From: Guptibacillus hwajinpoensis
Lineage (GTDB): Bacteria; Bacillota; Bacilli; Bacillales; Guptibacillaceae
Assembly (NCBI RefSeq): GCF_001039475.1
Contig: NZ_LELK01000004.1
Location: forward strand, 371,055-435,054
Reading direction: 5' to 3'
Length of the DNA stretch: 64,000 bases
In this document: one piece after another, positions 48,821 through 64,000 of the stretch
How the letters are laid out: each line of letters opens with the position of its first letter
Position numbering within the stretch: position 1 is the stretch's first letter
The notes under the pieces: generated by a model
What the model was told of the DNA's origin: nothing
What the model saw: only the letters and a program-made list of their open reading frames with translations
Database searches by the model: none
Program-made: the position numbers and the translations under genes

Positions 48821-49380
48821 AGGGAATCGCTGTTTTAGTATCAATACAATACAGTAATGCTTCAGTAATTGTAGAAAATTTATGATTATGTCTGCTGTGT
48901 TTTAATATTAGATATTTGCTGGTGCTGGGAGTAGGTACCTCTTCCACTGTTCCTTTATAGCTGGGTTTAGAAAACCCAAAAGTCTATGCTGTAATTTAGT
49001 CTCCCTTTGCTAGCTGGAAGTTATTTCAGACATTCATTATGTGATTTAATTTATCGACAAAGATGAGATGCCACTTAAGGAGTTTGAACCTACGTCATTC
49101 GAATGTCTGTATTGTGATTTCTGTAATACATGTTCTCCCATTGAAAATACGTATACATTTGCGGGTATTATCTGATGAATATATTAGTGAGCTGCTCCTC
49201 TTCGACAGGGTGGCTCTTTTTTTAAATCAAATGATTAATAGGAAAATTCCGTCTGTTTGATTTTCCCCCTAAAAATTTCACTTAGTTACCATAAATGGAA
49301 ACATATTACCAGGCTCTTTTTTACAAAAAATCTCCTTTAATATTTGGGAAGTTCAAAAAACACTCAGGGGGATGACACAA

Positions 49381-50097
49381 ATGAAAAAGTTTTTAGTAGC
49401 TTTAATGGCAGTATTAATGATCATGCCATCATTCGCGAGTAACAATGCACAAGCAGCAAACTCGAATGGTATTGATCAGCATCAGATTACTGAATATACA
49501 TATGAAGACATCAAGGAATTAAAGCCTTATGTATCTGTTAAGAATGGCAAGTTCAAATTTGATTCAAGCCAAGCTAAAAAAGACGGTTTTGATAAAGAAT
49601 TAGTTAAAATGCAAAAAGAACACCTTTCTGGTATGAACAAAGAGATTAAAAATGGTAAGCTAAAGGCTCAAAACAATCTTGAGATTGTTACAGTAGATTC
49701 TGATTCTAAAGTCGAAGTTGAACAGGCTAATCCTGATCTGCCTGTAATCGAACCTAATTCGCCAGATGATAATGTTGTTGCATCTGCTGTGCCATATGCA
49801 AAAGCTAGTAGTTGTCTTGGCAAGAATACTTCTGTAAAATACCACTGGTGGGGTTATTCACGATACATGGATAGCTGTAGAGCAGAGAAGTTTGCGTACG
49901 ATATGGCAGTTGTTGGTGCTGGAGCAGGTGGAGCAGGAACTGCCGCAGCTCTTTGGTTCCCTCCAGCAGGAGTTGCTGCCGGTGTCATGGGTATGCATGC
50001 TACAATAATGTCAGTTCGTGCTTCTGCAAACAATCACGGTTATGGAATTATCGTAGAGATCACTTATGCTCAATTCTTCAATATTGATCCTCAATAA
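49381..50097 (+). CDS. Secreted protein with hydrophobic C-terminal domain, possible antimicrobial
   Basis: 238 residues from the ATG at 49381 (GGGGG ten bases upstream). Signal peptide MKKFLVALMAVLMIMPSFA with cleavage near ASNNAQA. A charged pro-like region (about 30-130) is followed by a compact end domain (about 140-238): two cysteines (SSCLG and MDSCRA), KYHWWGYSRYMD, then glycine/alanine-rich helices GAGAGGAGTAAALWFPPAG and VAAGVMGMHATIMSV. The pro-region plus membrane-active end looks like a secreted toxin or bacteriocin-like protein. A 59-residue two-helix protein follows 18 bp later and could give immunity. No family name is claimed. Confidence 0.6.
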   Translation: MKKFLVALMAVLMIMPSFASNNAQAANSNGIDQHQITEYTYEDIKELKPYVSVKNGKFKFDSSQAKKDGFDKELVKMQKEHLSGMNKEIKNGKLKAQNNLEIVTVDSDSKVEVEQANPDLPVIEPNSPDDNVVASAVPYAKASSCLGKNTSVKYHWWGYSRYMDSCRAEKFAYDMAVVGAGAGGAGTAAALWFPPAGVAAGVMGMHATIMSVRASANNHGYGIIVEITYAQFFNIDPQ

Positions 50098-52590: not shown

Positions 52591-53217
52591 TTAACTTTTG
52601 GAATAGAAAGGGTCGATAATTCCTCTTTTTATTCCCTCCACCACAGCACCAACTCGTGAAAAACAATTGAGTTTTTGTATGATTGTTGAAACGTGATGTT
52701 CTACAGTACGCTTACTCATCCCTAGAGACAAAGAAATATCTAAATTAGTCATATCTTTAGCAATGTTGTGTAATACCTTTGTTTCTGTTTCTGTTAAGCG
52801 ATTCTCTGAATAAGTTGGGTCTGTTAAGGAGATCGATATTGCTGTTTTTCCATCGTTTACTTTTCGAATAGCATCTGCTAATTTATTTATCGAGTTTTCT
52901 TTGGCTATAAAGCCTTTAGCTCCAGCCTTGAAAGCCGAACGTACATATTCTTCAAAGTTATAACCAGAAAGAATAATTACTTTGGTATTAGGGAATTCAT
53001 GAGTAATTTGCTTTGTAAGTTCAATGCCGTTGTAATCGTTCATTCTTATATCCATGACCAAGACGTCAACTTCTTTTCTTAATAGTATGTCATACAACTT
53101 TTCAGGATTATCAACTGCATCCATTACTTTAATATCCTGCTCGTTCTCCAAAGACTTTAAAATACCGGATATAACCATATGGTGATCATCAACTAATACG
53201 GTATTTATTTTCCTCAT
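52591..53217 (-). CDS. NarL/ComA-type response regulator
   Basis: 208 residues from the ATG at 53217 (GAGGGGG nine bases upstream). Receiver domain: VLVDDHHMVISG supplies the acid pocket (Asp10/Asp11), VLVMDIRMND the phosphate-accepting Asp56, VIILSGY the switch Thr/Ser position and FIAKE the lysine. The LuxR-type helix-turn-helix is LTETETKVLHNIAKDMTNLD with LGMSKRTVEHHVSTIIQKL. It overlaps the kinase gene by 29 bp. Likely target: the lanA promoter, which carries TTGCGG half-sites like those of ComA. Confidence 0.93.
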   Translation of the reverse strand: MRKINTVLVDDHHMVISGILKSLENEQDIKVMDAVDNPEKLYDILLRKEVDVLVMDIRMNDYNGIELTKQITHEFPNTKVIILSGYNFEEYVRSAFKAGAKGFIAKENSINKLADAIRKVNDGKTAISISLTDPTYSENRLTETETKVLHNIAKDMTNLDISLSLGMSKRTVEHHVSTIIQKLNCFSRVGAVVEGIKRGIIDPFYSKS

Positions 53218-55507
53218 TAGCATTTTCCCCCTCGATAGGAACCTCAAAATAAATGGTTGTCCCTTCGTTAATAGTTGAATAGATTTCTAAGTTTCCATTC
53301 AATTCTTCTATTTGTTTATAAGTCGTGAACAATCCCATACTTTTCTTGTGTAATAATTCCGTAATTTCCTTTGGCACTTGAAAACCTACCCCGTTGTCTG
53401 AGAGTTTGACATGAATAGTATTACTAGATATTTCTACATAAAGGGAGACCTTAGAGGCTTGTGCATGCTTTATAGCATTGATTATGAGTTCTCTAATCAC
53501 TCTGAAAACGTGCACTCTTACATAGCTGGTTAATTCATGACAATTCCCTTCAAATACAAAGGAAAGTTCAGTGGTTGGAGGATTAAGTTTATTAAGAAAT
53601 GATTTGATGCTTGCTTTTAATCCAAAATCATCAACCATGATAGGATGTAATTCGTTACACATTTTTCTAATCATCGAAATGGTTTCAACGATCTGTTGAT
53701 TTAAATGGACTAGATTTAATTCATGATTGTTTTTCTGGCTGAGCTTTATATCGTTCGAGATAAAGATTAGGTTTTGCAGCACACCATCATGTAACCAGTT
53801 CGATAACTCTTTTTTCTCATCTTCTTTTGTTTTAATTAACAGGTCACTAATTTTCTTGAATGATTGTGATGATTTTGAAAATTGAAAAGAATTAGAGTGT
53901 TCTTGTGTGTATTTTAAATTTCTTACGCTTCTTAATAGTTCGACAATATCCTTTATAAACGAACGTATGATTTTCAATTCTTTAGGTTTTAAAGGAGGTT
54001 CACTACTATATTTAGCTAAATATAGAACTCCTAATTCTGTTTCAAAATCACGTAAAACAAATGATGTGTATCGTAAGTCAGAATCTTTATCTTTTTTTTC
54101 TATATTCAGTGTAAGAATGTCCTTTCCATGCAATACACCGGTCGAATGGAGTATCTTTTGAGTTTCTCGATCTCTCCAAACTAAGCAAACGCCATTTACA
54201 CGTGCGATGCTATGGATAAGGTTACATATTGTCCTACCGATATGTAAGGCATGTTCTCCTTTAATGACATTACTTAGTACAGGAGATGGAGGAGAGATAG
54301 AAAAAACATCAGGCAATAGTTTGTTATGTAGATATTTAATGAATTTATAAGAAAAAATGAAGAGAACGATTGAACTTATTATAATTATTGTTTCATACGT
54401 TCTACCTGATAGATTTTCAATCGATCCAATTTTATGTTTCATAGAGAAAGATAAAAGGTACATAAGAGTCAAGGTTAGGAAAATAGAGACCACATAATGA
54501 ACGGTAGTGATTATTTCTTTTATATAAATGCTTAACCCCTTGTTCATTAAAAGTAGACTCAAGGTTATTGGAAGTACCAATATAAATGGAATGGTTAATT
54601 CGGAATTTATACTTTTCCAATTCATCATTATGGGAATAATGACGAATAGTATTACTGGTACAAACCCAATAAGTAAACAGCTGATTATATAGTAAATTTT
54701 CGTTTCTACTGCAGAAGTGAATCTCTGGTACATAATCAATAAAAAGATACTGGTCGTGCCTGCAAATAAGAAGTGTCCTATTACTAATCCTTCGATGATT
54801 ACTCGTATAGGAGAGAATTTCGTGAAATAAATCAACAATAAAAAGATTAACGAAGAACCAATAAAGAAATAGGATATATGTAGAAGTTTACTCTTCAATA
54901 CTTTTCTAATTTGCGTAGGATATGTTGTAAAAAAATGAACTAAACAATGAGACGTTAACAAAATCGATACCACCCCTATGACATGGGCATAAGGTAACCC
55001 CATCTGTGAAGGAGTAATACTAATGATCGTAAAAGCCATACTTGAGCATAAAATATAAAAAACTAGGGCTTCTTTTATATACGATTTTCTTATATATGTA
55101 TAAGATGCAAACATTAGAAGTAAGGCTGAAATGAAAACATGTAATAGATAAAGGTTTTTTTGAGGATCTTCTTTTAGAGTGACAGAATAAATGTTATTCG
55201 AAGAATCCTTAAGCAAAGCATAATCAATTCCAGATACAACTCCCCACACACTTCCTGTTTCACTAGCATATGGATTACCATCTATGCTGATGATGATATC
55301 TCCTTCTTCAACACTCTTAAAAGAAGAGTTTCCTGAGGCAACACCTATTCCAATATTAGAAACTTTAGGATTTATTGATATATATCCTGAACTAAAGTTA
55401 AATACGAATGGCGTGAAAAAGTATACGCATCCTAGAAACAGAATGCCTACACTGTACATAACCAATTTATTCTTCCCATTGCTTGTCATTAGAATCCCCC
55501 AATCCAA
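53189..55507 (-). CDS. ComP-like membrane sensor histidine kinase
   Basis: 772 residues, close to ComP (~770). One N-terminal helix, then an outer PDZ-like domain (VASGNSSFKSVEEGDIIISI at about 54) as in ComP; about eight helices (110-400); a GAF-like region (400-540); HisKA_3 with SNWLHDGVLQNL, phospho-acceptor His573; and an ATPase domain ending DNGVGFQVP and SMGLFTTYKQIEELNGNLEI. Partner of the overlapping NarL-type regulator. No ComQ/ComX-like pheromone genes are seen, so the lantibiotic itself or an outside peptide may be the signal. Confidence 0.92.
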   Translation of the reverse strand: MDWGILMTSNGKNKLVMYSVGILFLGCVYFFTPFVFNFSSGYISINPKVSNIGIGVASGNSSFKSVEEGDIIISIDGNPYASETGSVWGVVSGIDYALLKDSSNNIYSVTLKEDPQKNLYLLHVFISALLLMFASYTYIRKSYIKEALVFYILCSSMAFTIISITPSQMGLPYAHVIGVVSILLTSHCLVHFFTTYPTQIRKVLKSKLLHISYFFIGSSLIFLLLIYFTKFSPIRVIIEGLVIGHFLFAGTTSIFLLIMYQRFTSAVETKIYYIISCLLIGFVPVILFVIIPIMMNWKSINSELTIPFILVLPITLSLLLMNKGLSIYIKEIITTVHYVVSIFLTLTLMYLLSFSMKHKIGSIENLSGRTYETIIIISSIVLFIFSYKFIKYLHNKLLPDVFSISPPSPVLSNVIKGEHALHIGRTICNLIHSIARVNGVCLVWRDRETQKILHSTGVLHGKDILTLNIEKKDKDSDLRYTSFVLRDFETELGVLYLAKYSSEPPLKPKELKIIRSFIKDIVELLRSVRNLKYTQEHSNSFQFSKSSQSFKKISDLLIKTKEDEKKELSNWLHDGVLQNLIFISNDIKLSQKNNHELNLVHLNQQIVETISMIRKMCNELHPIMVDDFGLKASIKSFLNKLNPPTTELSFVFEGNCHELTSYVRVHVFRVIRELIINAIKHAQASKVSLYVEISSNTIHVKLSDNGVGFQVPKEITELLHKKSMGLFTTYKQIEELNGNLEIYSTINEGTTIYFEVPIEGENANEENKYRIS

Positions 55508-55624
55508 TAAGATAGCAGCTATGTACTAAGAGTTTTAGACTAAAATGGAAAATTATTATAAATTAATCCACCAAACATCATGTTAAGGAAGTCTTACATA
55601 AATTACAAGTTTTTCTAAAAAGAT

Positions 55625-55661
55625 TTTGCGGTAAATGCAGTGAAATATTTGCGGTATATAC
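55625..55661 (+). promoter_or_regulatory. Tandem TTGCGG repeats upstream of lanA (ComA-box-like)
   Basis: TTTGCGGTAAATGC at 55625 and TTTGCGGTATATAC at 55648, start-to-start 23 bp, about two helix turns. TTGCGG is the left half of the ComA box TTGCGG-N4-CCGCAA; the right halves here are degenerate. A weak -10 (TAAGAT at 55687) would put the sites upstream of and near -35, a normal activator position. Confidence 0.6.
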
Positions 55662-55739
55662 GGATATCAATTCTTCTCATAACCGTTAAGATTAAATTGT
55701 ACTCGCGAGCTACTAATAAAATTTAGGAGGAATTGTAAA

Positions 55740-55880
55740 ATGGAAAATGCGAAAAATGCTTTTGACCTTGATCTTGAAGTAACAAAATCTAAGGATGTAG
55801 TTGAGCCTAACATCACTAGTTATAGCTTCTGTACACCTGGTTGTGGGGAAACAGGTAGTTTTAACAGTTACTGCTGTTAA
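55740..55880 (+). CDS. lanA: Epidermin/gallidermin-type class I lantibiotic precursor (LanA)
   Basis: 46 residues with AGGAGG eleven bases before the ATG. The leader (1-24) contains FDLD at 8-11, the FNLD-type box recognised by LanB/LanC. The core (25-46) starts ITSYSFC, continues TPGCGE and ends TGSFNSYCC. Against epidermin (22 residues) all modified positions of the core are kept: Ser3, Cys7, Thr8, Cys11, Thr14, Ser16, Ser19, Cys21, Cys22. LanD downstream predicts the C-terminal aminovinyl-cysteine. Lys4 and Lys13 of epidermin are Tyr and Glu here, so the core has no positive side chain. Cleavage after EPN is inferred from the EPR site of epidermin. Confidence 0.95.
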   Translation: MENAKNAFDLDLEVTKSKDVVEPNITSYSFCTPGCGETGSFNSYCC

Positions 55881-55892
55881 TAAGTAATACAT

Positions 55893-55950
55893 AAAGGGCT
55901 GCACTCCATGATTTCAAACCTTAGAGGTTTAATACATAGAGCAGCCCTTT
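55893..55950 (+). terminator. Attenuator-like hairpin between lanA and lanB
   Basis: Ten-base perfect arms AAAGGGCTGC / GCAGCCCTTT enclosing a small AAACC/GGTTT hairpin, followed by AATTATTTTT. It would let much lanA mRNA end here with partial read-through to lanB. Confidence 0.8.
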
Positions 55951-55981
55951 AATTATTTTTCTGTCCAAAGGAGGAAAGAAG

Positions 55982-58900
55982 ATGGGATTAGATAAGTTTT
56001 CTCAAAAAACGAGCCAACTATACGGAACGATGGATTATTTTATGCTCAGGGCACCTTTACTCCCGATATCAGAAAGTTATGGACACGCAGGAAGTGACTC
56101 ATTTATTGCTAATATCAAAATGATTTCTGATATGCCTGAAGTTAAGGAGGCTATTGCAGTATCTAGTCCAACACTATATAAATCTTTACACAAGCTAAAC
56201 GGTGATCCTAAATCTAAAAAGACAAGAAACGCAATCTCAAGTGTTATGAAGTTTTTAATAAGAATGTCGACACGCCCAACTCCATTTGGTTTATTTTCAG
56301 GCTTTGCCAGTGGTCATTTCAGCGAAGAAACGATGGGAAATATAGGAGAAATAGACCAGCATATCAAGAGGGCGCGGCCAGATATGGAATGGCTGTTGGG
56401 AATTGTAGGAATAGCCGAAGATGAGTATAGCATTGTGAAAGATGTAAAAGTGAAGGTGAATGACACTGTCTATTTCGTTGGAGAGAGAGTTTATCTAGGT
56501 TATCATTCCAATGGAGGAAGAAAGAGCAACAACGACAAAGTTGAAAAAACAGAGAATATTTCGATTAAGTACAGTGAGGCAGTTGAGAAAGTGTTTGCTC
56601 ATGCTAATGGTTATATCTATTTCTCTGATTTAGTAGGAAATATACACGAAGCATATCCAGGTGTAGAAAAGGATCAAATTAGAGATTTTATATGGAAATT
56701 ATTTAAAGAAGAATTTTTGATTAGTGAGTTAAGACCTCCGTTTACTAATACAAATTCTTTTACCTACATAATTAATAAGCTAAAAAACGTTGATGGAGCA
56801 AAGACTCTGGTAGACGAATTGGTTGAGATAGCTCGTGAAATAGATGTATATAATAGCTTATCTATTGGTGAAGGTTTAGAGAAATATGAGCAAATAACCA
56901 GTAATATGAAGAGTTTACATAAAATCAACACACCGTTACAAGTGGATGTTAAGCTTCATTTTCCTGAAGAGGTTAAGATACATAAAAATGTAAAGCAAGA
57001 TGCAGCTTTTGCTGCTGAACTATTATGGAAACTATCAGAACCTACCATAGGATATAAACATCTAAAAGACTATCATATGGAATTTATTGAAAAGTATGGG
57101 ACAAATAGAGAAATTAGCGTATTAGAGTTGCTTAGTGAGGAAAAAGGATTAGGGGCACCTGCGACATACAAACACCCGCAAGGTTTCAGAAGTTTTAGTG
57201 ATGACCACTATTCTAATTCACAAATGGACCGTCTCTTATTTGGAAAATACCATGAATGTGTCGCAAGTGAAAGTTTAGAAGTAGTTCTTACAGAGAGTGA
57301 GCTTCAACCAATATTAGATGATGAAACAGTTGATATGTTCGCTCCTGATTCAGGCGAATTATATACTGAGTTACTATCGCCTTCAAAAGAAGATCTTGAT
57401 AATGGGGATTACTTATTAGCGATAGGCAGTAATGCAGCTTCTATGGAAGTAGGACAAACTTTTGGTAGATTCTCTGACATGTTGGATGAGCATTCATTAC
57501 TTAATATAACTAACGATCAAAGAGAAATTCAGAAAAACTTCACTGATGATTCTGTTGAATTCGTAGAAGCAACTTTTTTACCGAACTCTGGTAGAACTGG
57601 AAATGTCTCTGTAAATTACTCATCTCAAAAATTCGAACTGGCTTTGGGCACAAATACTTCTTCGTCAGGAAAATCGATTGCAATTCACGATATCATGGTG
57701 GGTGCAACATTGGGAAGACTCTACCTAAAATCGAAATCATTAAACAAACGCCTAGTTATTAAATCGAACAATATGTTCAACTTCAATAATGCACCAAATA
57801 TATATAGGTTTTTACAGGAAGTTTCCAAGGAAGATACCAAACCTATTAAACCCTTTAACTGGGGAGTTTTAGAACATTCACCATTTTTACCGAGAGTCAG
57901 AGTTGGAAGGTTGATCTTAAATCCAGCACTATGGAAAATCAATCAATCGATAGTAGAACTAGCTGATCCAGACCTCGACTTTCAAGAATGGAAGAAGAAT
58001 TTTGAAGAGTGGAAAGCTAAATGGAAAGTCCCTGAGGTAGTATTTTTAACCTTTGGAGACAATAGGATACTAATCGATCTGCAAAATGACTTTCATTTAA
58101 AAGAACTGAGAGGAGAGTTAAGGAAGAAGGGAAGGGTTCAACTAAGAGAGGTTATAAGCAATTACAAAGACCATCACTGGGTTAAAAATAATAGTAGGTC
58201 ATATAACTCTGAACTGATTATTCCTTTTAAGAAGAATGAAGTAGTACACCCTAAGCCAAAAGTTAGGTTGCTAACTACATCGGAAATCTCTGAAGAAGAT
58301 ATTTATAAAGAGATCGGCTCTGAGTGGCTGTACTTTAAAATATACTTACCTTTCAGTCGACAAGAACCATTAATTGCTCAAGAGTTTTATGAGTTCGTCA
58401 AAACGATTAAATCTCAAAAAGGTGTGGAAAATGTCTTTTTTATTAGATATCAGGACCCACAACCCCATATTCGGTTGCGGATGAAAGGTGCACCAGAAGA
58501 ATTAATAGGATCGGTGTTACCGAAATTTAGGAATTGGTTCAATGTTACAAAGCAAAAAGGATATGTAAGAGACTTTTCAATAAATACTTTTGAAAGAGAA
58601 ATCGAAAGGTACGGCGGTCTAGGTCTAATCGATACTATTGAAGATTACTTCGAGGTCGATAGCTTTATCGCAATCGAACTACTTAAGATGAAGAAGTTCA
58701 ACCAATTAGAATTTGATCTACCGTATATTGCTGCCATGAACATTTTACATTTACTAGATAAAATCGGGTGGCCATATGATAAACAGCTAACTTGGATCAA
58801 GACTGGTACAGACAAGCTTGATTATATAGATGAAGTAAGACCAATTAGAAAAGAGCTTGTATCGCGCACCCTACCCTTTGACGGGTGGGCACATTTACAA

Positions 58901-59173
58901 AAGAGTGATTACAATCTGTATAAACTGCTTTCTATGAAAGACCAAATCCTATCTGTACTTGCAGAAAAGATTGATCGAAATCTGGAAACAAACTCCCTAA
59001 CTAATAACCCAGAGAGGATTATTGGAAGTTTGATTCATATGCATTGTAATAGGATTTTCGGTACGAACAGAGAGCTCGAGAAGAAAGTTATGGCTACAGT
59101 TAGGCATGTGCTAGAAGGACAGAAGTATTGGAGGGAGCAAGAGCGTGAAAGCGTCTATTCCCGAAGTATCTAA
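55982..59173 (+). CDS. lanB: Class I lantibiotic dehydratase LanB
   Basis: 1063 residues, full length for NisB/EpiB-type enzymes. The glutamylation domain holds RMSTRPTPFGLFSGFASGHF from residue 94 and RPDMEWLLGI. The SpaB_C glutamate-elimination domain starts at about 780 (GSEWLYFKIYLPFSRQEP), with FIRYQDPQPHIRLRMKG around Arg822 and the C-terminal HMHCNRIFG block. It uses glutamyl-tRNA to dehydrate Ser/Thr of the lanA core. GGAGG precedes the ATG, and its end overlaps lanT by 29 bp. Confidence 0.97.
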   Translation: MGLDKFSQKTSQLYGTMDYFMLRAPLLPISESYGHAGSDSFIANIKMISDMPEVKEAIAVSSPTLYKSLHKLNGDPKSKKTRNAISSVMKFLIRMSTRPTPFGLFSGFASGHFSEETMGNIGEIDQHIKRARPDMEWLLGIVGIAEDEYSIVKDVKVKVNDTVYFVGERVYLGYHSNGGRKSNNDKVEKTENISIKYSEAVEKVFAHANGYIYFSDLVGNIHEAYPGVEKDQIRDFIWKLFKEEFLISELRPPFTNTNSFTYIINKLKNVDGAKTLVDELVEIAREIDVYNSLSIGEGLEKYEQITSNMKSLHKINTPLQVDVKLHFPEEVKIHKNVKQDAAFAAELLWKLSEPTIGYKHLKDYHMEFIEKYGTNREISVLELLSEEKGLGAPATYKHPQGFRSFSDDHYSNSQMDRLLFGKYHECVASESLEVVLTESELQPILDDETVDMFAPDSGELYTELLSPSKEDLDNGDYLLAIGSNAASMEVGQTFGRFSDMLDEHSLLNITNDQREIQKNFTDDSVEFVEATFLPNSGRTGNVSVNYSSQKFELALGTNTSSSGKSIAIHDIMVGATLGRLYLKSKSLNKRLVIKSNNMFNFNNAPNIYRFLQEVSKEDTKPIKPFNWGVLEHSPFLPRVRVGRLILNPALWKINQSIVELADPDLDFQEWKKNFEEWKAKWKVPEVVFLTFGDNRILIDLQNDFHLKELRGELRKKGRVQLREVISNYKDHHWVKNNSRSYNSELIIPFKKNEVVHPKPKVRLLTTSEISEEDIYKEIGSEWLYFKIYLPFSRQEPLIAQEFYEFVKTIKSQKGVENVFFIRYQDPQPHIRLRMKGAPEELIGSVLPKFRNWFNVTKQKGYVRDFSINTFEREIERYGGLGLIDTIEDYFEVDSFIAIELLKMKKFNQLEFDLPYIAAMNILHLLDKIGWPYDKQLTWIKTGTDKLDYIDEVRPIRKELVSRTLPFDGWAHLQKSDYNLYKLLSMKDQILSVLAEKIDRNLETNSLTNNPERIIGSLIHMHCNRIFGTNRELEKKVMATVRHVLEGQKYWREQERESVYSRSI

Positions 59174-61031
59174 CTTGTCTATGAGAGAAGTTTTTAAAAC
59201 ATTTAAATACTGGCCAAGAATTTTCTCATTACTATGGCAAACACACCGGGGCTACTTCTTTCTTGTTATTTTTTTGAATATATTTAGCGGGCTTTTACCA
59301 GCCCTGCTAATTTTTTTGACTCAAATATTGGTCAATTATGTTCAATCCTCCTATTCTGAAGACTTAGATTTTTCTACTTCCTTGGGAGAATTTGGGCCTA
59401 TATTTAGTGTATTTGCAATCGTCACGATCCTTTCTGGGATATCTGGATTGATACTGGAAACATTTAAATCTATCTATCGTGAATTACTTTCGAATGTAAT
59501 CAATATCAAAATAATGAATAAAGCGATAAATCTTTCGTATGCTAGTTTTGAAAATGATCGAATCTATGACAATTTACAAAGAGCTAGACAAGATGCGACC
59601 TATAAACCGTATCAAATATTTGAAAAAGTCATGGGAATCATTCAAGGAACGGTAACCTTATTTTCAGTCGCGGGTATTTTGATAGCTTGGAAGTGGTGGA
59701 TAGGATTTATCTTACTATTGATCCCCATTTCATCAGCATGGTCTGTCTTAAAAGTGGGGCAACAAATCTTTCAGGTGGATTATCAACGTGCTACTGAAAA
59801 AAGAAAACAATTCTACTTTATGCATTTGTTGACTACTGATGCGAATGTTAAAGAGATCAAAACGTTCCAACTAGGAGAATTGATTTTAGGTAAGTATAAA
59901 GGGCTATATCAAAAGTTTTTTGCTCAAGATAAGTTTTTATTGTTGAAAAGGATGAAGATCGACCTGGTTTTTCAAATCCTCACATTAATCGTAGTGGTTG
60001 GCATCCAACTATTAGTTATTTATGAATCGTTGCTGGGGTTGATAGCTATTGGGAGCTTGATTGCGTATTTTCAAGCGATGACCACCTCTCAAACCACCTC
60101 TACTAGATTGATGTATAACATATTTGAAATGCATCAGAACAACCTTTATATTAGTCAACTTTTCACTTTCTTTGACGTTGAAGAAGAAACAGATCGTCCA
60201 CTTTCTTTAAAACAACCAGAAACTTCAAATGGTTTTACCAACACTGGAATAGAGTTTGTGAATGTGTCTTTTAAATATCCCAATACCAATCATTATGTGT
60301 TGAAAAATGTGAGCTTTCAAATAAAGCCTGGAGAAACATTAGCATTAGTAGGAAAAAACGGCTCTGGAAAGTCGACCATCGTTAAATTGTTAAATCGATT
60401 ATACACAGAGTATGATGGTCTGATCTTACTTAACGGCAAGGAATTACGGTCCTACACGGCCAAAGAGTGGAGTCAAGTGATAACGGCTGTATTCCAGGAT
60501 TTTGTGAAATACGAATTGGATGTTAAGGATAACATAGGGTTTGGAAACTTCGAGAAAAGCGATGACATACATGCAATTAACGAATCGGCAATCTTATCAG
60601 GATCATCTGAAATTATCGAGAAGCTGCCATATGGTCTGGATACTCAGTTAGGAAAGTGGTTTGCAGATGGTTATCAGTTATCAGGAGGACAATGGCAAAG
60701 GATAGCTATCGCCAGATCTTACATGAAGAATGCTGAAATTTATATATTAGACGAGCCTACTGCAGCACTAGATCCGGAATCAGAAACGGAAGTCTTCAAG
60801 AAATTTAATGAAGTTACAAAAGGTAAGATTGGTATTTTCATCTCCCATCGCTACTCTGCAGTCCAATACACAGATAACATCATTGTGTTAAAAGACGGGA
60901 GGATTGTAGAGCAAGGGAACCATGAATTGTTGATTCGAAAAAAAGGCGAATATGCGAAGCTGTACGAGACTCAAGCTGAATCTTACGTCAAAACTTATCG
61001 ACCACAAAAACTTGTTAGTTCGTCATCATAA
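59145..61031 (+). CDS. lanT: Lantibiotic ABC exporter LanT (no peptidase domain)
   Basis: 628 residues from GTG with GGAGGG upstream. Six-helix exporter domain (about 30-330), then the ATPase: Walker A GKNGSGKST at about 403-411, QDFVKYELDVKDNIGFG, signature LSGGQWQRIAIARS and Walker B IYILDEPTAALDPE. There is no C39 peptidase domain at the N-terminus, so leader removal must be done by another enzyme. It exports the modified precursor. Confidence 0.95.
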   Translation: MKASIPEVSNLSMREVFKTFKYWPRIFSLLWQTHRGYFFLVIFLNIFSGLLPALLIFLTQILVNYVQSSYSEDLDFSTSLGEFGPIFSVFAIVTILSGISGLILETFKSIYRELLSNVINIKIMNKAINLSYASFENDRIYDNLQRARQDATYKPYQIFEKVMGIIQGTVTLFSVAGILIAWKWWIGFILLLIPISSAWSVLKVGQQIFQVDYQRATEKRKQFYFMHLLTTDANVKEIKTFQLGELILGKYKGLYQKFFAQDKFLLLKRMKIDLVFQILTLIVVVGIQLLVIYESLLGLIAIGSLIAYFQAMTTSQTTSTRLMYNIFEMHQNNLYISQLFTFFDVEEETDRPLSLKQPETSNGFTNTGIEFVNVSFKYPNTNHYVLKNVSFQIKPGETLALVGKNGSGKSTIVKLLNRLYTEYDGLILLNGKELRSYTAKEWSQVITAVFQDFVKYELDVKDNIGFGNFEKSDDIHAINESAILSGSSEIIEKLPYGLDTQLGKWFADGYQLSGGQWQRIAIARSYMKNAEIYILDEPTAALDPESETEVFKKFNEVTKGKIGIFISHRYSAVQYTDNIIVLKDGRIVEQGNHELLIRKKGEYAKLYETQAESYVKTYRPQKLVSSSS

Positions 61032-61043
61032 GGAGGAATTTGC

Positions 61044-62399
61044 ATGGTTCAGAACGTCAAACATCCCATAGTACGAGATGAAGAAATGAAGGGTAGAATT
61101 CAAGATGTTGTCTTTAACTTAGCAAAGAAACTAAATAATCCTGAGGAAGTTGAAAGGAAGGTGATGGCCAAAGACAATAAAACATTAATAGGGAAGGTAA
61201 ATCCTTGGGGGCCTTTATCTTTATCGCACGGATTCCCCGGTACGATCATGTTTTTTGGGGAGCTTGATGATCTCTTTCCAAATCAAGGCTGGGATGAAAT
61301 CGCACATAAACATATTGTGTACTTAACCCAATACTTACAAATGGGGGTACATTCCATTTCGCTGTTTGGCGGAGTTACAGGATTAGCTCTTTCTATATTA
61401 AATGTTTCTAAGAATGGAGAAAGGTATCAAAATTTATTATTCAATTTAGATACGTTTATCAAGAGAGAAGCCGAGAATATGCTGAAACTCGAAAATGAGA
61501 GATTAGAAGAACAAAAAGGTGTAACACCAGCATTTTATGATGTGATACAGGGAGGAACAGGAATCGGTAGATACCTTCTTGAGCGAGCTCCACAAAACCC
61601 AGAATTATACGCTCCACTAAAACAATTTTTAAAGCTTTTTACGTATTATCAATTGGAAAAAGACAGGAACCCATTACTTGGCTGGCATGTGATTAGAGAG
61701 GACCAATTCTTAGAGAAGGATAAAGTGAAATATCCTGAGGGTAACGTTAATTTCGGATTAGCGCATGGGGTATTAGGTCCAATGAACTTATTAACATTGG
61801 CAGCCTCTGAAGGGGTAGAGGTTCCACTCCAAAAAGAAACGATTGAGAGTATGTCAGAAGATTTATTCCGAGTAATGAGGTATGATTCGGATAATCATCC
61901 GGTTTGGCCACACAGATTAGCCTATAAAGAAATGCTCTCTAATGATTTTGTCATACAAGATACACGGAACGGTTGGTGTTATGGAAATCCCGGTGTAGCT
62001 AGATCTCTATACTTGGCTGGGGAAGTTTTAGGAAATCAAAGATACAAACAAGTGGCTATGAATGGTTTTAAAGGGATTGTTAGTCAACCCAATGATGACT
62101 TAGTTAGTGCATCTTTTTGTCATGGTAAATCAGGGTTGCTCCAATGTCTTGTAAGAATGAGGTCAGAAACTGGTGAAGGGTGGCTGGATGAACAAATTTG
62201 GTCTTTAACTGATTCCATTTTAGGTCAATATGATAAAGAAAATCCGTTAGGGTTTTATGATATAGAAGAGTTTGGTGGCCAAGGAAATACGATCACCAAA
62301 GCTGGTCTATTGGAAGGAAGTTCAGGAACAGGATTAAGTTTAATGGGCCTACTAGGTAATGGGACGCCTAGATGGGACAAAGCATTTTTACTATCTTAA
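61044..62399 (+). CDS. lanC: Lantibiotic cyclase LanC
   Basis: 451 residues. Zinc ligands Cys312 (NGWCYGNPGVA), Cys359 and His360 (SFCHGKSGLLQ), with the catalytic-type histidine His241 (GLAHGVLGPMN), all expected for NisC/EpiC. SHGFPGTIMFFGEL and HSISLFGGVTGLALSI are early helix-barrel glycine motifs. It joins Cys thiols to dehydrated residues to form the lanthionine rings. AGGAGG precedes the ATG, 12 bp after lanT. Confidence 0.96.
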   Translation: MVQNVKHPIVRDEEMKGRIQDVVFNLAKKLNNPEEVERKVMAKDNKTLIGKVNPWGPLSLSHGFPGTIMFFGELDDLFPNQGWDEIAHKHIVYLTQYLQMGVHSISLFGGVTGLALSILNVSKNGERYQNLLFNLDTFIKREAENMLKLENERLEEQKGVTPAFYDVIQGGTGIGRYLLERAPQNPELYAPLKQFLKLFTYYQLEKDRNPLLGWHVIREDQFLEKDKVKYPEGNVNFGLAHGVLGPMNLLTLAASEGVEVPLQKETIESMSEDLFRVMRYDSDNHPVWPHRLAYKEMLSNDFVIQDTRNGWCYGNPGVARSLYLAGEVLGNQRYKQVAMNGFKGIVSQPNDDLVSASFCHGKSGLLQCLVRMRSETGEGWLDEQIWSLTDSILGQYDKENPLGFYDIEEFGGQGNTITKAGLLEGSSGTGLSLMGLLGNGTPRWDKAFLLS

Positions 62400-62424: not shown

Positions 62425-62988
62425 ATGAGAGAAGAGGCGAATATATTAATAGGAATAACTGGTTCTATATCTGTGTTGAGTTTGCCAACCTATTTAGGGG
62501 CAATCAAACATAACTTCGGAAACGTAAAAGTTATTATGTCAGAATCAGCCAGCAAGATGCTACCATCCTCAACGATCTCCTTATTCTGTGATGATGTTAT
62601 GGTGACGAGCGAGGATGAGTTACAAAATAAGTATAATCACGTTCAACTAGCTAGGTGGGCAGATCTATTCATCATTCTCCCTGCTACAGCTAATACCATT
62701 GGGCAGGCTGCCCACGGTTTAGCCCCAGATTTACTATTATCGACCATATTAGCTCACCATCATCCAGTAATCTTTTATCCGAACATGAACAAACTTATGT
62801 GGGAAAAGGCTAGCTTACAGCGAAATATTGACTACTTAAAAGAAGATGGTCATATGGTTGTTCAGCCAGAAGAAAAATCCGCGTATGAGGTGGCATCTGG
62901 TACTATTAAAACAAACTTTATAATACCGGACGTACCATCTATTTTAAAAGACCTAAAGAGTGAATTACATAATCGAAAAAGTTTTTAA
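62425..62988 (+). CDS. lanD: EpiD-like flavoprotein cysteine decarboxylase LanD
   Basis: 187 residues, HFCD family. ILIGITGSISVLSLPTYLGA binds FMN; active-site His72 is in YNHVQLARWAD; PATANTIGQAAHGLAPDLLL corresponds to the PASANT motif with Ser changed to Thr; YPNMNKLMWEKA is the substrate clamp. It oxidatively decarboxylates the C-terminal cysteine of the precursor, giving the enethiol that forms AviCys with Ser19 of the core. AAGGAGG precedes the ATG. Confidence 0.95.
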   Translation: MREEANILIGITGSISVLSLPTYLGAIKHNFGNVKVIMSESASKMLPSSTISLFCDDVMVTSEDELQNKYNHVQLARWADLFIILPATANTIGQAAHGLAPDLLLSTILAHHHPVIFYPNMNKLMWEKASLQRNIDYLKEDGHMVVQPEEKSAYEVASGTIKTNFIIPDVPSILKDLKSELHNRKSF

Positions 62989-63075
62989 ATCATAACGAGA
63001 AAGTTCCCAATCTTGATAATTCCTTGGGATTTTCTCGTTATCTTTATTTTATACAGGAATGAAGGAGGAACAGTT

Positions 63076-63801
63076 ATGGAAAATGTGATCGAAGTACGTA
63101 ATTTAACGAAGAAGATAAAGCGTAAAACACTAATTAATGATGCTTCTATCAGTATTAAAGAAGGAGTAATCTGTGGTTTTTTAGGTCCGAACGGAGCTGG
63201 TAAAACAACATTGATGAGATTATTAACGGGGCTCGTAAAGCCGAATAAAGGTGAAGTGTTATTAAACGGTAAAAATGTGAACAAAGACCGTGAAGAAGCA
63301 TTAAGACATATAGGTGCAATCGTTGAAGCTCCTGTTTTCTTTGAGTATTTATCAGGCAGGAAGATGTTGAATAATTTAGCTCGTTTACATCAATTGTCAA
63401 AATCTGAAAGGAAACAAAAAGTAGAGGAAGTACTTGAGATCGTTAACTTAAAGGAACGAGGAGACGACATCATAAAAACTTACTCTCTAGGTATGAAACA
63501 AAGGCTAGGGATAGCCCAAGCATTATTAGGAAATCCGAAAGTGATCATTTTGGATGAGCCAGCTAATGGACTTGACCCTATCGGTATGAGGGATCTTAGA
63601 GAACTTATTCTTTATTTAAACTCTACAAAGAACATTACGTTTTTTATCTCGAGCCATTTACTAGATGAGTTACAACACGTTTGTAACGAACTCGTGATGA
63701 TTAAGGATGGAGAGATCAAATATCAAGGAAGTGCAAAGGATGTGTTAAAAGACGATCACCAACGTCTAGAAGATATCTTTTTTGAGTTGATGTCATCATG
63801 A
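63076..63801 (+). CDS. lanF: Lantibiotic immunity ABC transporter ATPase LanF
   Basis: 241 residues from the ATG at 63076 (GAAGGAGG upstream). NLTKKIKRKTLINDASISIK, Walker A GPNGAGKTTLM, signature YSLGMKQRLGIAQ, Walker B VIILDEPANGLDP and HLLDELQHVCNEL fit the BcrA/LanF group. It powers removal of mature lantibiotic from the producer's membrane. Its stop overlaps the permease ATG (ATGA). Confidence 0.93.
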   Translation: MENVIEVRNLTKKIKRKTLINDASISIKEGVICGFLGPNGAGKTTLMRLLTGLVKPNKGEVLLNGKNVNKDREEALRHIGAIVEAPVFFEYLSGRKMLNNLARLHQLSKSERKQKVEEVLEIVNLKERGDDIIKTYSLGMKQRLGIAQALLGNPKVIILDEPANGLDPIGMRDLRELILYLNSTKNITFFISSHLLDELQHVCNELVMIKDGEIKYQGSAKDVLKDDHQRLEDIFFELMSS

Positions 63802-64000
63802 AGGGATTAATAGTGAGTGAATTTGAACGTCTGTGGTCTAGAAAGTTTATAATCATTCTGTTTTTAAGTATTCCTGCGTTAACGTTTGCTTTAGGTATGT
63901 ACTATAAATCGAATAATGAGGAAATTATTCAACTTCAACCAGATTTTGCGACAGCTTTAAACTTCCCTATTCTGGGGTTGGCGGAACACTTATTTATAAC
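63798..64000 (+). CDS. lanE: Lantibiotic immunity permease LanE (3' end outside window)
   Basis: The first 67 codons are seen and the frame is open to the window end. A polar start (GLIVSEFERLWSRK) and a first helix (FIIILFLSIPALTFALGMYY) are as in ABC-2 type permeases of LanE/EpiE type. ATGA overlap with lanF shows coupling. A LanG permease and perhaps LanP may follow outside. Confidence 0.85.
   Translation, partial: MKGLIVSEFERLWSRKFIIILFLSIPALTFALGMYYKSNNEEIIQLQPDFATALNFPILGLAEHLFI

What the first reader, a model, noticed from the sequence alone, without database searches (positions are those of the whole stretch)
55740..55880. Anionic epidermin-type lantibiotic, possibly undescribed
All ring-forming residues of epidermin are retained in a 22-residue core, but Lys4 is Tyr and Lys13 is Glu, leaving no positive side chain. 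Known epidermin, gallidermin and mutacin 1140 are cationic, which helps them bind anionic membranes and lipid II. A net-negative member would test what charge does in this group and may have a different target range.
Basis: partly seen in the sequence, partly recalled or inferred. Interest (0 to 1): 0.88.

Follow-up and report, generated by a model that had tools for sequence, protein, structure and literature searches.

The report
Clausin-type lantibiotic gene cluster
The gene encodes a small ring-bearing antibacterial peptide, a close cousin of the known lantibiotic clausin, so its lack of positively charged residues is already known in nature, although the way its genes seem to be switched on may be worth a look.

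Summary
The gene is real: window 55740-55880 encodes a 46-residue class I lantibiotic precursor (Pfam Gallidermin, 7e-15), core ITSYSFCTPGCGETGSFNSYCC, followed by lanB, lanT, lanC, lanD and immunity and regulatory genes. Clausin of Shouchella clausii has a core 19/22 identical, with the same Glu13 and no Lys/Arg; it is purified, active and reported to bind lipid precursors of the cell wall. Of eight distinct 22-residue cores read here, five (none staphylococcal) lack a positive side chain. The mature product should be about net zero: N-terminus +1, Glu13 -1, and AviCys removes the C-terminal carboxylate. The exact core was not met elsewhere in the searches run: a new member of a known kind. 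A side finding is more original. A divergent ComP/ComA-like pair lies beside lanA, and a 17-bp operator-like sequence with a second TGCGG 23 bp upstream is shared with the lantibiotic promoter of Priestia megaterium plasmids, which also carry ComX- and ComQ-like genes. In the window's genome no ComQ was found, and no ComX-like match either, though that last test is weak.

The parts
55740..55880 (+). lanA, 46-aa precursor (leader 24 aa + core 22 aa)
   Evidence: Pfam Gallidermin 7e-15
55812..55877 (+). core peptide ITSYSFCTPGCGETGSFNSYCC; cleavage site after ...VEPN inferred from the alignment with other precursors
   Evidence: cleavage is inference
55627..55665 (+). operator-like motif TGCGG-N18-TGCGGTATATACGGAT, shared with the P. 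megaterium lanA promoter
55886..55957 (+). stem-loop between lanA and lanB (partial terminator or mRNA-stabilising stem, inferred)
   Evidence: inverted repeat; fold of 55878-55981 -32 kcal/mol, z -4.7, 0 of 200 shuffles as good; the simple terminator scan found nothing here
55982..59173 (+). lanB, lantibiotic dehydratase, 1063 aa
   Evidence: Pfam Lant_dehydr_N 1.2e-174 and Lant_dehydr_C 6.1e-52; NisB 4wd9 1e-65
59145..61031 (+). lanT, ABC exporter, 628 aa
   Evidence: Pfam ABC_tran 2.4e-32; 54% to the P. megaterium pBM700 counterpart
61044..62399 (+). lanC cyclase, 451 aa, WCYG and FCHG present
   Evidence: Pfam LANC_like 5.8e-65; NisC 2g02 8.7e-35
62425..62988 (+). lanD, AviCys-forming cysteine decarboxylase, 187 aa, NHVQL and PNMNKLMW present
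   Evidence: MrsD 1p3y 1.1e-47, EpiD 1g63 3.3e-29
63013..63801 (+). lanF, immunity ABC ATPase (start codon uncertain)
   Evidence: TIGR03740 6e-65, below its curated cut-off (219.1 of 309.75 bits); 63% to the S. rhizosphaerae cluster gene
63798..64000 (+). start of lanE permease; lanG, lanR and lanK follow outside the window
   Evidence: L010 14853-18617; 40-49% to Shouchella/Alkalicoccobacillus cluster genes
53189..55507 (-). ComP-like sensor histidine kinase, 772 aa, divergent from lanA
   Evidence: Pfam HATPase_c 9.5e-11; 27% over residues 150-765 to the kinase beside lanA on pBM700
52591..53247 (-). ComA-like LuxR-type response regulator, 218 aa
   Evidence: Pfam Response_reg 1.5e-24, GerE 1.2e-13; 49% to the pBM700 regulator

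Best explanation
This is a class I lantibiotic cluster making a clausin-type (epidermin-subgroup) peptide. LanB dehydrates up to seven Ser/Thr, LanC closes rings Ser3-Cys7, Thr8-Cys11 and Ser16-Cys21, and LanD decarboxylates Cys22, which closes with Ser19 to AviCys. LanT exports it and LanFEG protects the producer. The product is expected to bind the pyrophosphate of lipid II through the backbone of the conserved N-terminal rings, so side-chain charge is not essential, and to inhibit Gram-positive neighbours. Its net charge is near zero. Shown: gene content and sequence conservation. Inferred, from established knowledge of nisin, epidermin and clausin: modification, ring pattern, mass, charge, target and activity.
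For: Precursor and enzyme families. Core 19/22 identical to the S. clausii core in L018. The mass calculated for that S. clausii core with 7 dehydrations and AviCys is 2107.78 Da, or 2107.86 with losses rounded to 18 and 46 Da; published clausin: predicted 2107.86, MALDI 2107.94. LanB, C, D, F, E, G, R and K are closest, of ten loci compared, to the Shouchella or Alkalicoccobacillus clusters, 40-63%. Clausin is reported to bind lipid I/II (PMC8772736) and C55-PP-GlcNAc (PMC7358638), both citing Bouhss 2009, which is not held.
Against: No product, expression or activity data. No leader protease was recognised among the nine proteins scanned; the wider genome was not searched for one. LanT is only about 30% like the Shouchella exporter and nearer that of Priestia (54%). 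In the LanB tree the window branches with the Shouchella-type and Staphylococcus rows at 100/98, but its exact sister is unresolved. In PMC10413542 the recombinant clausin masses were 2-3 Da above prediction. PMC6165006 lists S. clausii KSM-K16's peptide as only 56% identical to clausin, which does not sit with the identification made here by mass.
Confidence: 0.92

Rival explanations
1. A new functional class: a genuinely anionic epidermin with a different target because of its charge.
For: Core has 0 Lys/Arg and 1 Glu.
Against: The clausin core has the same charged residues and clausin is reported to bind lipid precursors. AviCys removes the C-terminal carboxylate, so the product is about neutral. 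Mutacin 1140 variants with Ala, Asn or Asp at 13 stay active.
Confidence: 0.04
2. A silent or decayed cluster whose peptide is not made.
For: The kinase-regulator pair has no ComX/ComQ-like gene beside it, and the only ComQ match in the genome looks like HepT. A strong stem-loop follows lanA.
Against: The cluster genes are long open frames. lanRK, closest to the regulators of the clausin-type clusters, is present. A stem-loop behind lanA is usual in lantibiotic operons (recalled).
Confidence: 0.1

Closest known systems
Clausin (Shouchella/Alkalihalobacillus clausii)
   Same: 22-residue core, 19 identical; same Glu13 and no Lys/Arg; seven Ser/Thr; lanB, C, D, F, E, G, R, K in the same order
   Different: Ile1/Tyr4/Tyr20 for Phe1/Val4/Phe20; lanT lies between lanB and lanC here, whereas in L018 a distant exporter gene (30%) lies upstream on the other strand; no match to the ComP/ComA-like pair within the 20-kb S. 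clausii locus
Priestia megaterium pBM700 lantibiotic (not experimentally characterised according to PMC6165006, passages)
   Same: Core ITSVSLCTPGCGDTGSWNSFCC, 17/22, also without Lys/Arg; lanA-B-T-C-D-F order; divergent kinase and regulator; same operator-like motif
   Different: Tandem identical lanA copies (2 on pBM700, 4 on pMLY91_2), plasmid-borne, with ComX- and ComQ-like genes
Epidermin/gallidermin (Staphylococcus)
   Same: Ring-forming residues and Cys-Cys end; 16/22 to each
   Different: Lys4 and Lys13, Ala2 and Phe5; 5 instead of 7 Ser/Thr; LanB only 30%
Bacillus subtilis ComQXPA
   Same: Kinase/LuxR-type regulator pair and TTGCGG elements (consensus from PMC4797271, passages)
   Different: No comX or comQ beside the pair and no ComQ found in the genome; the spacing of the elements does not fit B. 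subtilis ComA's 4- or 5-nt rule

Membership tests
Epidermin-subgroup class I lantibiotics | Gallidermin-family precursor with FDLD-type leader | tested here: met
   Pfam 7e-15, TIGR03731 2.1e-18, NF038155 6.2e-06, all above their cut-offs
Epidermin-subgroup class I lantibiotics | 22-residue core with Ser3/Cys7, Thr8/Cys11, Ser16/Cys21, Ser19/Cys22 | tested here: met
   residues present; the ring pattern is recalled
Epidermin-subgroup class I lantibiotics | LanB, LanC and LanD in the same cluster | tested here: met
Epidermin-subgroup class I lantibiotics | Modified product with lanthionines and AviCys | not testable with these tools
   needs mass spectrometry
Clausin type | Core with Gly12-Glu13, no Lys/Arg, seven Ser/Thr | tested here: met
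Clausin type | Binding of lipid II / C55-PP-GlcNAc | not testable with these tools
   reported for clausin only
ComQXPA quorum sensing | ComP-like kinase and ComA-like regulator | tested here: inconclusive
   27% and 49% to the pBM700 pair; likeness to B. subtilis ComP/ComA themselves is recalled, not tested
ComQXPA quorum sensing | ComX pre-peptide and ComQ isoprenyl transferase | tested here: not met
   no such gene beside the pair; the only ComQ match in the genome is an HepT-like enzyme beside a ubiE/menH-like gene; the Priestia ComX-like peptide finds nothing in the genome, a weak test since no positive control was available
ComQXPA quorum sensing | TTGCGG direct repeat with a 5-nt spacer or inverted repeat with a 4-nt spacer | tested here: not met
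   TTGCGG occurs twice, 23 bp start to start; any second half-sites are degenerate

The most novel reading that the evidence does not exclude
The clausin-type cluster is switched on by a ComP/ComA-like two-component system through a conserved operator (TGCGG-N18-TGCGGTATATACGGAT), in addition to lanRK. On Priestia plasmids the same operator goes with its own isoprenyl-peptide pheromone (ComX/ComQ-like), whereas the window's species has kept the receiver without recognisable pheromone genes, so it would listen to a signal made by others or to a different ligand.
Probability: 0.35. Interest if true: 0.5.

Novelty: new member of a known kind. Interest (0 to 1): 0.25.

Why it matters
It corrects a tempting claim: epidermin-type lantibiotics without positive side chains are an existing natural group (cores in Shouchella, Priestia, Marininema and Alkalicoccobacillus), not a single oddity. 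That group is a ready-made natural series for asking what charge does in lipid II-binding peptides. The shared operator and the ComPA-like pair make quorum or cross-species control of such a lantibiotic directly testable.

Tried and rejected
Six strings from the window and clausin cores were searched in the paper library: 0 papers. This is weak evidence, since clausin's own strings gave none either; PMC8772736, for one, shows clausin as a drawing. A search for clausin with net charge and lipid II gave 0 papers. ComQXPA with lantibiotic gave 13 papers, judged from titles and opening abstract lines alone; none of those lines describes ComX control of an epidermin-type lantibiotic. Lanthipeptide, gallidermin and ComX together gave 0 papers. 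The ComQXPA census PMC4008528 has 0 mentions of megaterium or lantibiotic in its main text.

Viral contigs: of 83 stretches that matched a pattern none was confirmed as a relative. The 17-bp motif gave 3 hits there; no lanA-like frame was seen in their fetched stretches, and I take them for chance. The 46-base promoter query against plasmids gave 3 hits, E about 9, in Providencia and Citrobacter, and did not itself recover the Priestia site, so it was not a sensitive test. Six other loci show no TGCGG within 400 bases upstream of lanA, so the motif is not general to the family.

No sigma-70-type promoter and no intrinsic terminator was found by the consensus scan at 55480-56000.

Full report
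What is there. Window 55740-55880 (+) encodes MENAKNAFDLDLEVTKSKDVVEPN-ITSYSFCTPGCGETGSFNSYCC, preceded by AGGAGG at 55725-55730. It scores far above the cut-offs of Pfam Gallidermin (55.6 against 21 bits) and NCBIfam gallidermin/nisin family (66.1 against 29.3 bits). Downstream on the same strand lie lanB (55982-59173), lanT (59145-61031), lanC (61044-62399), lanD (62425-62988) and lanF (63013-63801). Beyond the window, in the same genome, lanE, lanG, a response regulator and a kinase follow (L010 14853-18617; identified by their matches to the genes of the clausin-type clusters). LanD aligns with MrsD (1.1e-47) better than with EpiD (3.3e-29) and keeps NHVQL and PNMNKLMW; LanC keeps WCYG and FCHG (that these are active-site motifs is recalled).

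Is the charge pattern new? No. The genome-contig scan with a four-precursor alignment gave 16 relatives. With the window, two plasmid-borne staphylococcal precursors and the Priestia one, 20 loci were read. Eleven have a 22-residue epidermin-type core, and these are eight distinct sequences: window, P. megaterium, Marininema halotolerans, the Shouchella core (identical in S. clausii, S. tritolerans and S. rhizosphaerae), Alkalicoccobacillus porphyridii, gallidermin (S. gallinarum, S. arlettae), epidermin (S. epidermidis) and S. schweitzeri; the names gallidermin and epidermin are recalled. Five of the eight have no Lys/Arg (four with Asp or Glu at 13, one with Asn), and none of the five is staphylococcal; the three with Lys are. 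Left out of this count are five Actinomycetota loci (L024, L025, L026, L029, L031; four distinct 24-residue cores, all without Lys/Arg, two of them with one His and one Glu), and L022, L027, L028 and L030, whose cores have another shape. The scan used patterns taken from the four input precursors, so this is not an even sample, and cationic mutacins of Streptococcus are not in it. The Shouchella core fits clausin by mass: 2107.78 Da with 7 dehydrations and AviCys, 2107.86 with the losses rounded to 18 and 46 Da, against 2107.86 predicted in PMC10413542 (passages) and 2107.94 measured in PMC7358638 (passages). Against this, the recombinant masses in PMC10413542 lay 2-3 Da high, and PMC6165006 states from in silico analysis that S. 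clausii KSM-K16 encodes a lanthipeptide other than clausin, listing 56% identity (passages). That the clausin core reads FTSVSFCTPGCGETGSFNSFCC is also what I recall; no passage that I saw prints it.

Charge. PMC5997364 counts F1I mutacin 1140 as +3, its R13N form as +2 and its R13D form as +1 (passages), which fits a free N-terminus, Lys2, Arg13 and no C-terminal carboxylate. By the same count the window's product is 0, as is clausin: neutral, not anionic. The same paper gives modal MICs on C. difficile of 0.25 ug/ml for F1I and 1 ug/ml for F1I-R13D (n = 8 in its table), so an acidic residue 13 costs activity but does not abolish it. PMC9794991 reports MICs on one MRSA strain of 0.5 (wild type), 0.5 (K2A) and 0.25 ug/ml (R13A) (passages). 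Clausin is said to bind lipid I/II (PMC8772736, passages) and C55-PP-GlcNAc (PMC7358638, passages); the primary paper is not held.

How common. PF02052 was found in 5 of 397 genomes of the order and 3 of 398 of the phylum, the window's own included in both. The precursor itself was found in 1 of 15 genomes of the family, only its own, and in 8 of 397 of the order at E <= 0.01. Of the seven others, the precursors of five were read and none is epidermin-type; two weak matches with in-frame stops were not resolved as lanA. The exact window core was not met outside its own genome in any search run. Sixteen plasmid records matched: 12 Priestia and 4 Staphylococcus.

Make-up of the cluster. Against ten loci, LanB, C, D, F, E, G, R and K are closest to the Shouchella or Alkalicoccobacillus genes (best identities about 45, 49, 56, 63, 49, 47, 49 and 40%). 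LanT is closest to P. megaterium (54%, against 30% for Shouchella). The kinase and regulator match only P. megaterium at E <= 1e-5 (27% over 656 aligned columns, the kinase's first 149 residues not aligned; 49%). In the LanB tree (15 rows) the window falls with the Shouchella-type and staphylococcal rows at 100/98, with its closest sister unresolved; long branches make the deeper forks unsure. The cluster therefore looks mosaic.

A shared operator. The 232 bases between the kinase and lanA contain TTGCGG twice (1 match of the spaced pair in the window; 3 of 100 shuffles have at least one). The downstream copy extends to TTGCGGTATATACGGAT, which is identical over 17 bp in the 224-base region between the ComX-like gene and lanA on pBM700, 74 and 78 bp from the respective ATG; 500 pairs of shuffled regions reached at most 13 bp. 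In both, a second TGCGG stands 23 bp upstream, start to start. With the 40 bases that end with this block masked, the two regions share nothing longer than 8 bp. The 16-base form occurs once exactly in the window's genome, plus one copy with two mismatches. It was also seen in the second Priestia plasmid fetched (L013), but no TGCGG lies within 400 bases upstream of lanA in six other loci. B. subtilis ComA binds TTGCGG hexamers as an inverted repeat with a 4-nt spacer or a direct repeat with a 5-nt spacer (PMC4797271, passages). The spacing here meets neither rule, so the link to ComA rests on the neighbouring genes and the TTGCGG core.

The neighbouring pair. On pBM700 the order divergent from lanA is a 57-residue ORF ending ...NEVGNEWV, a polyprenyl synthetase-family protein (Pfam 7.8e-07), the kinase and the regulator: a ComX-Q-P-A-like set, where the ComX likeness rests only on size, place and a Trp near the C-terminus, and no Pfam or NCBIfam family matched it. 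In the plasmid collection the 12 best matches to the window's kinase, of 415 records, are the same 12 Priestia plasmids that carry lanA. The window's own intergenic region has no such ORFs among those of 20 residues or more. The only match to the Priestia ComQ-like protein in its genome is a 326-residue frame (24% identity) beside a ubiE/menH-like gene, most likely HepT (these names are my reading of the sequence). The ComX-like peptide found nothing there, a weak test because such peptides diverge fast and no positive control was at hand. In the other 14 genomes of the family the window's kinase matched only from about residue 519 on, the kinase end; no full-length relative was found. Whether the pair controls lanA, and what it senses, is inference.

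Verdict. The regulatory arrangement is the part worth testing.

Noticed in passing
L012 7722-11561 and L013 101-1283: Priestia megaterium plasmids carry tandem identical lanA copies (2 on pBM700, 4 on pMLY91_2) and, on pBM700, a ComX/ComQ/ComP/ComA-like set divergent from them.
   Followed up: partly
window 55627-55665; L012 11669-11707: Operator-like motif TGCGG-N18-TGCGGTATATACGGAT conserved at nearly the same distance from lanA in two otherwise dissimilar promoters.
   Followed up: partly
L024, L025, L026, L029, L031: Actinomycetota (Actinokineospora, Saccharopolyspora, Prauserella) encode 24-residue CTPGC...CS(F/H)CC cores, also with no Lys/Arg, behind FDLD leaders.
   Followed up: no
L016 10001-10135: Marininema halotolerans has a core ITSVSLCTPGCGDTGSFNSYCC, 19/22 to the window, with lanFEG- and lanRK-like genes upstream of lanA instead of downstream.
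   Followed up: no
L022 10001-10168: Bacillus sp. FJAT-22090 has a longer precursor, ...ITSYMLCTPGTCWKTCKGDATLNSNCCIGKTSVTCA, with an odd CTPGTC motif.
   Followed up: no
window 49372-50097: 241-aa secreted-looking protein with no Pfam family at E 0.001 and only one weak NCBIfam match far below its cut-off, upstream of the cluster.
   Followed up: no
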